Assembly: GCF_003385955.1 (NCBI RefSeq)
Contig: NZ_QRDW01000006.1
Span: forward strand, 62,001 to 126,000
Source: Aestuariispira insulae
GTDB lineage: Bacteria; Pseudomonadota; Alphaproteobacteria; UBA8366; Aestuariispiraceae
DNA length: 64,000 nt
Direction: 5' to 3'
Each line of letters begins with the position of its first letter. Within the stretch, counting starts at the first letter, position 1. Below are positions 60,972 to 64,000 of this stretch, piece by piece. Position numbers and translations under genes: made by a program. A model generated the notes under the pieces. The model did not search any database. It was not told the DNA's origin and saw only the letters and a program-made list of their open reading frames with translations.

Positions 60972-61210
60972 TTCATTTATGCAACATTAGGCTACAGTAT
61001 CTGTCTTAAAAGCTCCTTAATGGTATCCGCAATCAAGAAGGCAACCCTAGTTATTCCCCCCCGGAACAGCAGTATTTTGCGCAAAAGCCGGCCTGCGTGA
61101 CTGGCCAAACAGGGAAAATGTGGGTACAACCGCCGCAATCAGATTATTCTGAGCCGAATACGGCTAATCTTGAAACGAAATTACGCAAATTCTCAGGAGT
61201 GTCCCCGGTC

Positions 61211-62323
61211 ATGGCCACCAACAAAACCCTGCTTATGCTTCCCGGTGACGGGATCGGTCCCGAAGTCTTCAACCAGGTCCGCCGGGTTGTCGACTGGATG
61301 GCCAAAAACCGCAGCATCAATTTTGACCTGAAGGAAGGCCTGGTGGGCGGCGCCTGTTATGACGTACATAAACAAGCCATCACCGACGAGACCATGCAGG
61401 ATGCCCTGGATGCGGATGCGGTCCTGTTCGGCGCGGTCGGCGGCCCGCAATATGACAATGTGGAACGCCATGCGCGGCCCGAAGCCGGCCTGCTGCGCCT
61501 GCGCAAGGAAATGGATCTTTTCGCCAACCTGCGCCCGGCCGTTGTGTTTGATGCGCTGCTGGATGCCTCGACCCTGAAACCAGAAGTGATCCAGGGTCTG
61601 GACCTGATGATCGTGCGCGAACTGACCAGCGGCGTCTATTTCGGCGAGCCGCGTGGCATGCAGGATTATAATGGCGTTGAACGATGCATTGACACCCAGG
61701 CCTACACCAAAGCCGAGGTTGAACGGGTGGCCGCCGTCGCCTTTGATCTGGCCCGCAAACGCAACAGTCGGGTTCATTCGGTGGAAAAAGCCAATGTGAT
61801 GGAAACCGGTATTTTCTGGCGCAAGACCGTGACCGAGCTGCATGCCAGCGGTGGTTACCAGGATATCGAGCTTGCCCATATGTATGCCGATAACTGTGCC
61901 ATGCAGCTAATGAAGAACCCGAAACAGTTTGATGTGATCGTCACCGACAACCTGTTTGGCGACCTGCTTTCCGATGCGGCGGCCATGAGCACCGGCTCGC
62001 TCGGCATGCTGCCATCCGCCAGCCTGGGCGCGGCAGACGAAAACGGTCAGCGCAAGGCGCTTTACGAGCCGGTACACGGATCCGCCCCGGATATTGCCGG
62101 CCAGGACCTGGCAAACCCCAGCGCCATGCTGCTGAGTTTTGCCATGATGCTGCGCTACAGCTTCGGCCTGTTGAAAGATGCCGACATGGTTGAAAACGCC
62201 ATTCAGAATGTTCTGAAATCCGGCATCCGCACCGGTGATATCATGGCCCCGGGTTGCACCCAGGTGGGCACTACCGGCATGGGGGACGCCATCCTGGCGG
62301 AACTGGACAAACTGGTCGGATAA
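61211..62323 (+). CDS. leuB: LeuB, 3-isopropylmalate dehydrogenase
   Basis: This NAD-dependent oxidative decarboxylase follows LeuCD in leucine synthesis. Its 370 residues include [85 protein letters not shown] and [32 protein letters not shown]. The ATG at 61211 has CAGGAG eleven bases upstream. It is separated from leuD by three genes and followed by a terminator. Confidence 0.97.
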
Positions 62324-62345
62324 TCCGCCATCGGCTTCAGACGAT

Positions 62346-62374
62346 AAACGGGCGCTGTTATTGCGCCCGTTTTT
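62346..62374 (+). terminator. Terminator after leuB
   Basis: The 10-bp stem AAACGGGCGC/GCGCCCGTTT with a 7-nt loop lies 23 bases after the leuB stop and ends in a T run. Confidence 0.9.
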
Positions 62375-62509
62375 CATATGATGGGAAATAAAATTTCACG
62401 TTCCCGCGATAAATTGAATGGAGCCGTCATTTTTCCGCATTGCCCGCTTGATTTTTTGCAGCGCACAGCGTAGAACAGCCCCGGTTTGGTTTTGAAGGGC
62501 CTAGGATTA

Positions 62510-62620
62510 ATGGCATTCGCAATGGACAGCATGATGATGGTTGCGCAGAAAATGCGCCACATATCCGCTGTATCCAAAACCACCACCACCAAAACCAAAA
62601 CCACCAAGACCGGCAGATAG
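62510..62620 (+). CDS. Candidate asd leader peptide (36 aa, Met/Lys/Thr-rich)
   Basis: This short frame was read directly from the sequence. Translation gives MAFAMDSMMMVAQKMRHISA and then VSKTTTTKTKTTKTGR before TAG at 62618-62620. The composition is 6 Met, 5 Lys and 8 Thr of 36, with 12 of residues 23-34 being K or T. Lysine, threonine and methionine are the end products of the pathway that Asd commits. AGGA sits three bases and GAAGG about eleven bases before the ATG. The peptide ends just before an antiterminator/terminator pair (62624-62681), as in thrL-type attenuation. Expression is not shown, but the match of codons, position and RNA structure makes chance unlikely. Confidence 0.75.
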   Translation: MAFAMDSMMMVAQKMRHISAVSKTTTTKTKTTKTGR

Positions 62621-62623
62621 CCG

Positions 62624-62681
62624 CGAACCTCCGCATGTGCAGACTGAAAGCAGGCCGGGGTTCGAGAACTCCGGCTTTTTT
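62624..62681 (+). promoter_or_regulatory. Transcription attenuator in the asd leader
   Basis: Segment 2 (62624-62634, CGAACCTCCGC) can pair with segment 3 (62654-62664, GCCGGGGTTCG), with eight continuous pairs and two more after one mismatch. Segment 3 alternatively forms the terminator stem GCCGGGG (62654-62660) with CTCCGGC (62669-62675), followed by six T. The two pairings exclude each other. A ribosome finishing the leader peptide at 62618-62620 would mask segment 2 and leave the terminator; one stalled at the Lys/Thr codons would leave segment 2 free to form the antiterminator. asd starts at 62727. Confidence 0.75.
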
Positions 62682-62726
62682 GGTTTGTACGGTATTTTTA
62701 AACTGAGATGCAGATTGGTATGAACA

Positions 62727-63743
62727 ATGGGATACAAGGTAGCAGTAGTCGGCGCCACGGGTAATGTGGGCCGCGAGATTCTCAAAACGATGGCCGAACG
62801 CGGCTTCCCGGCCAAGGAAGTTGTGGCCCTGGCCTCTTCCCGCTCTGTGGGCGTGGAAATCTCCTATGGCGAAGACAAGACCCTGAAATGCCAGGACCTG
62901 GCTACCTTTGATTTCACCGGCACCGACATTGTTCTCTCTTCCCCCGGCGGCAAGATCTCTGCTGAATTTTCCCCAAAGGCAGCTGCGGCCGGCGCGGTCG
63001 TGATCGACAATACCTCCCACTTCCGCATGGATCCCGAAGTGCCGCTGGTTGTGCCGGAAGTTAACCCGGAAGCACTCGAAGGCTGGCGCAAAAAAGGTAT
63101 CATCGCCAACCCGAACTGCTCCACCATCCAAATGGTCGCGGCCCTAAAGCCCCTACATGAAAAATTTGGCATCAAGCGCGTGGTGGTTTCCACCTACCAG
63201 TCCGTTTCCGGCGGCGGCAAGGAAGCCATGGATGAGCTGTTCACCCAGACCCGCGCGATTTATGTGAACGATCCGATCGTGAAGGAAAAATTCACCAAGC
63301 AGATCGCCTTCAACGTGATCCCCCATATCGATGTCTTCATGGATGACGGCTCGACCAAGGAAGAATGGAAGATGGTGGTCGAAACCAAGAAGATCCTGGA
63401 TCCGAAAATCAAGGTCAGCGCCACCTGTGTGCGCGTCCCGGTTTTTGTCGGCCATGCGGAAAGCATCAACATCGAATGTGAAAAGGAAATCACGACCGAA
63501 TCTGCCCGCGAAGCCTTCAAGGAAGCCGACGGTGTGACCGTGGTCGATTTCCGCCAGGATGAAGGCTATGTCACCCCGGAAGAATGCGCCGGTGAAGACG
63601 CGGTCTATGTCAGCCGTATCCGCGAAGATATCTCGGTAGAGAACGGCCTGAACTTCTGGTGCGTTTCCGATAACCTGCGTAAGGGCGCTGCCCTCAACAC
63701 GGTTCAGATCGCTGAAGAGCTGATCAAACGCGACCTGTTGTAA
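62727..63743 (+). CDS. asd: Asd, aspartate-semialdehyde dehydrogenase
   Basis: This NADPH-dependent enzyme makes aspartate semialdehyde, the branch point for lysine, diaminopimelate, threonine and methionine. In 338 residues there are VAVVGATGNVGREILKTM, ALASSRSVG, the catalytic cysteine in IIANPNCSTIQMVAALKPLHEKFGIKRVVVSTYQSVSGGGKEAMDEL and an end domain with RVPVFVGHAESINIEC. The ATG follows the attenuator region by 45 bases. It is separate from leuB because of the intervening terminator. Confidence 0.97.
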   Translation: MGYKVAVVGATGNVGREILKTMAERGFPAKEVVALASSRSVGVEISYGEDKTLKCQDLATFDFTGTDIVLSSPGGKISAEFSPKAAAAGAVVIDNTSHFRMDPEVPLVVPEVNPEALEGWRKKGIIANPNCSTIQMVAALKPLHEKFGIKRVVVSTYQSVSGGGKEAMDELFTQTRAIYVNDPIVKEKFTKQIAFNVIPHIDVFMDDGSTKEEWKMVVETKKILDPKIKVSATCVRVPVFVGHAESINIECEKEITTESAREAFKEADGVTVVDFRQDEGYVTPEECAGEDAVYVSRIREDISVENGLNFWCVSDNLRKGAALNTVQIAEELIKRDLL

Positions 63744-63803
63744 TATTTGAAAAAATCGCAACCAACACTCGACCAGTGACACCGGGCCGGTTAAAGTCTT
63801 TTC

Positions 63804-64000
63804 ATGGAAAATGAGAAGACCGAAACCGGCCCGGCTCATTCCGGCGCCCCAGAAAGCCCGCAACCGGCAGGCACCTCGCAGGTGACCGCGCGGCCGGATG
63901 GCAATGCTTTACTGCAACAGGCGATCGCCCATCATCACAAGGGCCATATCCCTGAAGCCGCCAAATTCTATCGCTCCGCCCTGAAAATCGACCCGAGCCT
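63804..64000 (+). CDS. N-terminal part of a TPR protein (partial)
   Basis: The frame opens at ATG 63804 and runs off the window. After a Pro/Ser/Gly-rich opening, it has a tetratricopeptide-like pair: ALLQQAIAHHHKGHIPEAAKFYRSALKIDPS, with the A-x-x-x-Y-x-x-A-L-x-x-x-P spacing. In similar loci such proteins often continue into sulfotransferase or glycosyltransferase domains, but nothing beyond residue 65 is visible. The ribosome site is weak. Confidence 0.6.
   Translation, partial: MENEKTETGPAHSGAPESPQPAGTSQVTARPDGNALLQQAIAHHHKGHIPEAAKFYRSALKIDPS

What the first reader, a model, noticed from the sequence alone, without database searches (positions are those of the whole stretch)
62510..62726. 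Leader-peptide attenuator controlling asd, tuned to Met, Lys and Thr codons
A 36-codon frame upstream of asd is packed with codons for the amino acids made from aspartate semialdehyde (6 Met including ATGATGATG, 5 Lys, 8 Thr). It is followed by segment 2 (62624-62634), which can pair with 62654-62664, and by a terminator (62654-62681, six T) that shares that arm. The stop codon is four bases before segment 2, so a terminating ribosome would cover it and favour termination. Stalling at the KTTTTKTKTTKT run or the Met codons would favour readthrough. This is a complete three-part ribosome-mediated attenuator. Attenuation of thr, leu, ilv, trp and his operons is well known; I do not know of one described for asd with multi-amino-acid sensing in this group.
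Basis: partly seen in the sequence, partly recalled or inferred. Interest (0 to 1): 0.88.

Follow-up and report, generated by a model that had tools for sequence, protein, structure and literature searches.

The report
Thr/Lys leader-peptide attenuator upstream of asd
A short threonine- and lysine-rich peptide gene in front of asd, the gene feeding the lysine, threonine and methionine pathways, most likely lets stalled ribosomes switch asd on when threonine or lysine runs short; it is a classic kind of switch on a gene where it was hardly described, and it recurs in distant relatives.

Summary
A 36-codon frame (62510-62620) ends in KTTTTKTKTTKT, followed by an antiterminator arm (62624-62634) and a 9-bp terminator with six T (62654-62681), 45 nt before asd (62727). 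Thr/Lys-rich leader tails precede asd in 11 of 14 family genomes by a fixed criterion; the other 3 have weaker tails and T-tailed hairpins. They occur in 35 of 184 non-redundant asd loci, in 19 of 50 loci of one further family and in 2 of 69 of another. Lys+Thr ranks first of 190 residue pairs; the reverse strand gives 0 at the same threshold. Across relatives the segment after the stop pairs better with its own hairpin arm than with other loci's arms. I conclude a ribosome-mediated transcription attenuator of asd sensing Thr and Lys (0.85). Met sensing is not supported. No Rfam family matches. Prior hints: a Sinorhizobium sORF with six Thr and three Lys codons proposed as leader peptide (PMC10117765), and 'attenuator-like sequences' before Streptococcus mutans asd (title only). 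So it is a new, broader member of a known kind. Rhizobiales versions lack the T run and may work differently.

The parts
62448..62476 (+). candidate promoter TTGATT-17 nt-TAGAAC (inferred by eye)
   Evidence: sequence; CTTGATTT also present in relative L082; the sigma-70 scan of 62000-64000 found no promoter, so weak
62503..62506 (+). AGGA, candidate ribosome-binding site of the leader
   Evidence: sequence
62510..62620 (+). leader peptide ORF, 36 codons plus TAG
   Evidence: Thr/Lys tail recurs in relatives
62576..62611 (+). control codons K T T T T K T K T T K T
   Evidence: codon list; recurrence in 35 of 184 loci
62624..62634 (+). segment 2, 5' arm of the antiterminator
   Evidence: duplex -16.3 kcal/mol; swap test over relatives
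62654..62664 (+). segment 3, arm shared by antiterminator and terminator
62654..62681 (+). intrinsic terminator, 9-bp stem plus T6
62727..63743 (+). asd, aspartate-semialdehyde dehydrogenase, 338 aa
   Evidence: NF011456 and TIGR01296 above cut-offs; Pfam semialdehyde dehydrogenase domains
62346..62374 (+). terminator-like hairpin and T run behind leuB that would separate leuB from the asd transcript
   Evidence: 62343-62372 folds at -18.0 kcal/mol; sequence; not among the hits of the terminator scan

Best explanation
The 5' leader of asd is a ribosome-mediated transcription attenuator that senses charged tRNA-Thr and tRNA-Lys. With both amino acids plentiful, the ribosome reads through to the stop at 62618 and covers segment 2; segments 3 and 4 then form the terminator and RNA polymerase stops before asd. 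When Thr or Lys is short, the ribosome stalls in the K/T run (62576-62611), segment 2 stays free and pairs with segment 3 as it emerges, the terminator is delayed or prevented and asd is transcribed. Shown here by computation: the parts, their spacing, their recurrence in relatives and the pairing competition. Inferred: transcription start, translation of the leader in this organism, termination, and release by starvation.
For: Anatomy. Folding: with the transcript ending at 62664 and segment 2 free, the antiterminator is 0.90-0.94 paired in the six placements tried; with a ribosome on the stop it is 0.00 and the terminator is 0.97 at 62681. Family: 14 of 14 genomes hold asd; 11 of 14 pass the Thr/Lys criterion; L086, L087 and L088 show weaker Thr/Lys tails followed, by eye, by T-tailed hairpins. 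Wider: 35 of 184 non-redundant loci pass at 7 or more of 12 residues and 29 at 8 or more; Lys+Thr ranks first of 190 pairs (next Ala+Thr, 16); on the reverse strand Lys+Thr gives 0 at 8 or more and 1 at 7 or more, while the best reverse pair, Ala+Ser, gives 15. Six different Lys/Thr codons are used (ACC 130, AAA 76, ACG 69, AAG 29, ACT 15, ACA 8), which argues for selection on amino acids rather than a DNA repeat. Segment 2 pairs with its own hairpin arm at mean -21.3 against -16.8 kcal/mol when swapped among 29 loci, p 2.4e-5; 24 representatives, 20 of 24 stronger, p 3.0e-5. [quoted passage not shown]
Against: No transcript, termination or starvation data for this organism. At equilibrium with the transcript at 62681 the terminator reaches 0.57-0.65 in three placements with segment 2 free, 0.94 and 0.97 in two more and 0.19 in one, so the switch must act during transcription. 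An automatic stem finder gives significant antiterminators in 15 of 37 loci only. The leader is patchy: 10 of 93 kept class-sample loci L095-L200, 2 of 69 in family f171. The versions in f59 and in named Rhizobiales have no T run.
Confidence: 0.85

Rival explanations
1. The attenuator senses Met as well as Thr and Lys.
For: The window leader has five internal Met including ATGATGATG; MM occurs in 4 of 35 leaders (L001, L044, L090, L098). With a stall at MMM the antiterminator still forms once segment 3 is out (0.90-0.94), so such a stall could in principle work.
Against: The Met excess upstream of the tail is about one per leader, as expected from initiators, and is absent from the tail. At 62681 a stall at MMM leaves the terminator at 0.94, though one Thr placement gives 0.97, so folding does not decide.
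Confidence: 0.1
2. The sORF makes a functional small basic protein and the hairpin is an ordinary terminator of a separate small transcript.
For: In L087 the leader frame starts with a signal-peptide-like stretch, and the terminator would end such a transcript.
Against: The Thr/Lys tail recurs while the N-terminal parts differ. No Pfam or NCBIfam match to the window peptide at E up to 1. The tail stays next to a segment that competes with the hairpin.
Confidence: 0.05
3. A metabolite-binding riboswitch (for example for lysine) controls asd and the frame is incidental.
For: Lysine riboswitches control lysine genes in other bacteria (recalled).
Against: No Rfam match at gathering score in the window or in 20 related loci; no lysine riboswitch among the 11 weak matches to 62324-62760. 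Recurrence is at amino-acid level.
Confidence: 0.02

Closest known systems
thr operon attenuator of E. coli (thrL; PMC4132733, passages; PMC9792984, passages)
   Same: Leader peptide with consecutive Thr codons, terminator and competing antiterminator; slow decoding of those codons gives readthrough.
   Different: Regulated gene is asd, not thrABC; control codons are Thr and Lys (thrL: Thr and Ile, recalled). No sequence relation was tested.
SEP5 sORF of Sinorhizobium meliloti (PMC10117765, passages)
   Same: Cluster of six Thr and three Lys codons near the 3' end, in the 5'-UTR of what the paper calls the aspartate dehydrogenase gene (I take this to be asd); proposed as a leader peptide; translation shown.
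   Different: The paper calls it conserved only in Sinorhizobium; the passages read describe no terminator or antiterminator; I did not see its sequence. Named Rhizobiales leaders seen here lack the T-run terminator.
asd of Streptococcus mutans (Cardineau and Curtiss 1987; title seen in the reference list of PMC2864571) and the Rfam asd motif RF01732 of Lactobacillales (table of the same paper)
   Same: Attenuator-like sequences or a structured element before an asd gene.
   Different: Firmicutes; I saw no description of a Thr/Lys peptide there (paper itself not read). No Rfam family, RF01732 included, matches the window at its gathering score.
uORFC-8-2 motif before cysS in Rhodobacterales (PMC8632094, passages)
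   Same: Alphaproteobacterial uORF with tandem cognate codons and attenuator features.
   Different: Cys codons, tRNA synthetase gene, other order.

Membership tests
Ribosome-mediated transcription attenuator | short leader ORF rich in codons of pathway end products | tested here: met
   translation in this organism not shown
Ribosome-mediated transcription attenuator | intrinsic terminator between leader and structural gene | tested here: met
   window. T tails in several relatives but not in f59 and named Rhizobiales loci
Ribosome-mediated transcription attenuator | antiterminator sharing an arm with the terminator, placed so that a ribosome on the stop blocks it | tested here: met
   weaker (15 of 37 loci; window 7 of 200 shuffles as good)
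Ribosome-mediated transcription attenuator | readthrough rises when the cognate amino acids are limiting | not testable with these tools
   needs RNA-seq or reporters
Any Rfam 15 family (including Thr_leader, lysine riboswitch, asd motif RF01732) | match at the family's gathering score | tested here: not met
   whole window, 0 matches; 20 related loci, 0 matches
SEP5-like leader of Sinorhizobium | same peptide and gene context by sequence | tested here: inconclusive
   description agrees and named Rhizobiales leaders with similar Thr/Lys counts were seen, but the SEP5 sequence was not seen

The most novel reading that the evidence does not exclude
A widespread alphaproteobacterial asd leader gates the branch point of Lys, Thr and Met synthesis by sensing Thr and Lys together, with two outputs evolved behind the same kind of peptide: transcription termination in the window's relatives, and a non-terminator switch in Rhizobiales-like genomes, where the segment after the stop can pair with CCGGGGAGA-like sequence just before the asd ribosome-binding site.
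Probability: 0.5. Interest if true: 0.6.

Novelty: new member of a known kind. Interest (0 to 1): 0.45.

Why it matters
asd sits at the branch to lysine (and cell wall), threonine and methionine. A leader reading two end-product amino acids would be a direct form of joint feedback at that branch point. It recurs in distant alphaproteobacterial families, matches no Rfam family in the loci tested, widens a hint made for one genus, and gives codon-level predictions that a reporter can test.

Tried and rejected
Met sensing was tested and not supported. Same motif elsewhere in the genome: pattern AARACNACNAARACN gives 4 places against 17 for the control pattern. Of the other three, L203 lies antisense to a permease-like gene (named by eye); L202 and L205 lie in stop-to-stop frames of 277 and 77 codons and the genes around them were not examined. 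At hom no Thr/Lys leader was seen directly upstream; hom follows closely behind an aminotransferase-like gene (by eye), and what lies before that gene was not seen. Other pathway genes (lysC, thrC, dapA) were not examined. A Rhizobiales leader pattern gave 0 of 385 genomes of the class sample. The family of G376 (f171), first taken for Rhizobiaceae, is mostly without the leader: 2 of 69 loci, kept as a negative result. RNAalifold on a doubtful alignment of 23 Rhizobiales-type leaders gave no consensus structure. The stem finder misses stems with a mismatch (L008, L042, L098, L184), so 15 of 37 is a low estimate. Rows dropped before one search's counts: 5 loci without an asd hit, 10 redundant, and L112 for short upstream sequence. 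L010 and L016, which fail the criterion, were added by eye. Enrichment of Lys and Thr in the picked tails is by construction and is not used as evidence; the pair ranking and the reverse strand are. The loci of f59 and f171 were not made non-redundant.

Full report
The window ends with leuB (frame 61097-62323; residues from 61217 tested), a terminator-like hairpin behind it (62346 onward, -18.0 kcal/mol), then the asd leader and asd (62727-63743). One search names the genes: TIGR00169 leuB, NF011456 and TIGR01296 asd, all above their cut-offs. The hairpin behind leuB suggests that asd has its own promoter between about 62376 and 62510. TTGATT-17-TAGAAC (62448-62476) is a candidate by eye only; the sigma-70 scan found none in 62000-64000.

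The terminator is strong.

Recurrence is the main evidence. Asd loci came from 80 contigs with record titles (the best 80 of 590), 14 family genomes and a class sample in which 274 of 289 genomes have asd. Of the class sample only higher-ranking rows were fetched: 26 new loci and 80 more, so it leans towards Asd proteins close to the window's. Of 200 loci, 195 gave an asd hit and 184 were kept. A leader frame whose tail has 7 or more Lys+Thr in 12 residues occurs in 35 of 184, and 8 or more in 29 of 184. At 8 or more, Lys+Thr is the best of 190 residue pairs; next are Ala+Thr 16 and Gly+Thr 12, which share Thr. On the reverse strand Lys+Thr gives 0 at 8 or more and 1 at 7 or more; the best reverse pair is Ala+Ser with 15. 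Stops lie 102-204 nt before asd, median 120.

By group: 11 family genomes, 14 of 78 kept titled contigs, 10 of 93 kept class-sample loci. The titled ones include Brucella tritici, Ochrobactrum, Mesorhizobium, Nitratireductor, Chelativorans and Chthonobacter. In the family, 11 of 14 genomes pass; L086, L087 and L088 have in-frame tails such as KEKPTTTVAKGKSDQSTT (L086) and KTEKPTTVADGAGEHTKPKT (L088) further from asd, followed by hairpins with T runs (by eye); for L086 and L088 no start codon was established. In family f59, which I take to be Rhizobiales from its Asd similarity, 19 of 50 fetched loci pass (58 of 60 genomes have asd). In f171, 2 of 69 pass of 70 fetched (76 of 80 genomes have asd).

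Tails use six different Lys/Thr codons, and in the window, L082 and L083 the tails align with synonymous changes. Upstream of the tail Met is 0.066 (95% CI 0.050-0.083; 0.061 without the window) against 0.024 in control frames, about one extra Met per leader. I read this as the true initiator within frames that my script began at an earlier start codon. Met tuning is not supported as a conserved property; it is not excluded as a peculiarity of this leader.

Structure: right after the stop many leaders carry a copy of the terminator's 3' arm (for example CGCGGGCC ... GGCCCGCG ... CGCGGGCC), the classic 2-3-4 layout. Segment 2 pairs with its own hairpin arm more strongly than with those of other loci (29 loci, p 2.4e-5; 20 of 24 representatives, p 3.0e-5). 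The loci are related, so these p-values are rough. Individually 15 of 37 beat dinucleotide shuffles at about 5% (eight of the 37 are of the other architecture); the window has 7 of 200 shuffles as good.

Mechanism in the window: folding shows antiterminator 0.90-0.94 once segment 3 is out and segment 2 free, and none with a ribosome on the stop, when the terminator is 0.97. With the whole hairpin out, the terminator lies between 0.19 and 0.97 depending on the placement, so the decision must be kinetic. With no ribosome at all the antiterminator also forms first (0.94 at 62664), so this folding shows no protection against readthrough of an untranslated leader.

The Rhizobiales-type versions keep the peptide but lack the T run. 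By eye, CTCG-TCCCCGG after the stop can pair with CCGGGGAGA-like sequence just before AACAGGAG at the asd start, and CCCTCTCC with GGAGAGGG in Mesorhizobium and Ochrobactrum. Their output is unresolved.

Prior knowledge: no Rfam match at gathering score in the window or in 20 related loci. Ten searches of open-licence papers (the lists were capped at 25 of 26, 10 of 266 and 10 of 18) led to one close suggestion, SEP5 of Sinorhizobium meliloti (PMC10117765, passages only). The reference list of PMC2864571 gives a 1987 title on attenuator-like sequences before Streptococcus mutans asd, and its table lists an asd motif in Lactobacillales, RF01732. PMC2965389 and PMC8632094 do not mention asd in their main text; PMC4117421 mentions Caulobacter leader peptides but neither threonine nor semialdehyde; in PMC7143759 and PMC10454058 the matching words mean other things. 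The 2004 survey of proteobacterial attenuators (Vitreschak and others) could not be read, so I cannot exclude that asd is in it.

Verdict: a real, recurrent, ordinary-in-kind but little-described attenuator on asd that senses Thr and Lys.

Noticed in passing
L282, L307, L289, L311, L324 and others in family f59; L053, L067, L069, L070, L048: Same kind of Thr/Lys leader before asd but no T run; the segment after the stop can pair with CCGGGGAGA- or GGAGAGGG-like sequence next to the asd ribosome-binding site. A second architecture with unknown output.
   Followed up: partly
L087, leader frame ending 211 nt before asd: The Thr/Lys tail is joined to a signal-peptide-like start (MKKGIALGVTLLGLTAFSMGASA, by eye); no NCBIfam match.
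   Followed up: partly
window 62483-62499: GGUUUGGUUUUGAAGGG at the likely transcript start pairs with the AAAACC repeats of the K/T codons in the full-leader fold; GTTTTGA is shared with L082 and L083. Possibly a segment 1.
   Followed up: no
L211 and L220 (family f171): Two leaders of different genera have Thr/Lys tails ending KGGTTR, in a family where the leader is otherwise mostly missing.
   Followed up: no
window 62343-62419: Weak Rfam match to Termite-leu RNA (25.5 bits, gathering 51), overlapping the hairpin behind leuB; probably just that hairpin.
   Followed up: partly
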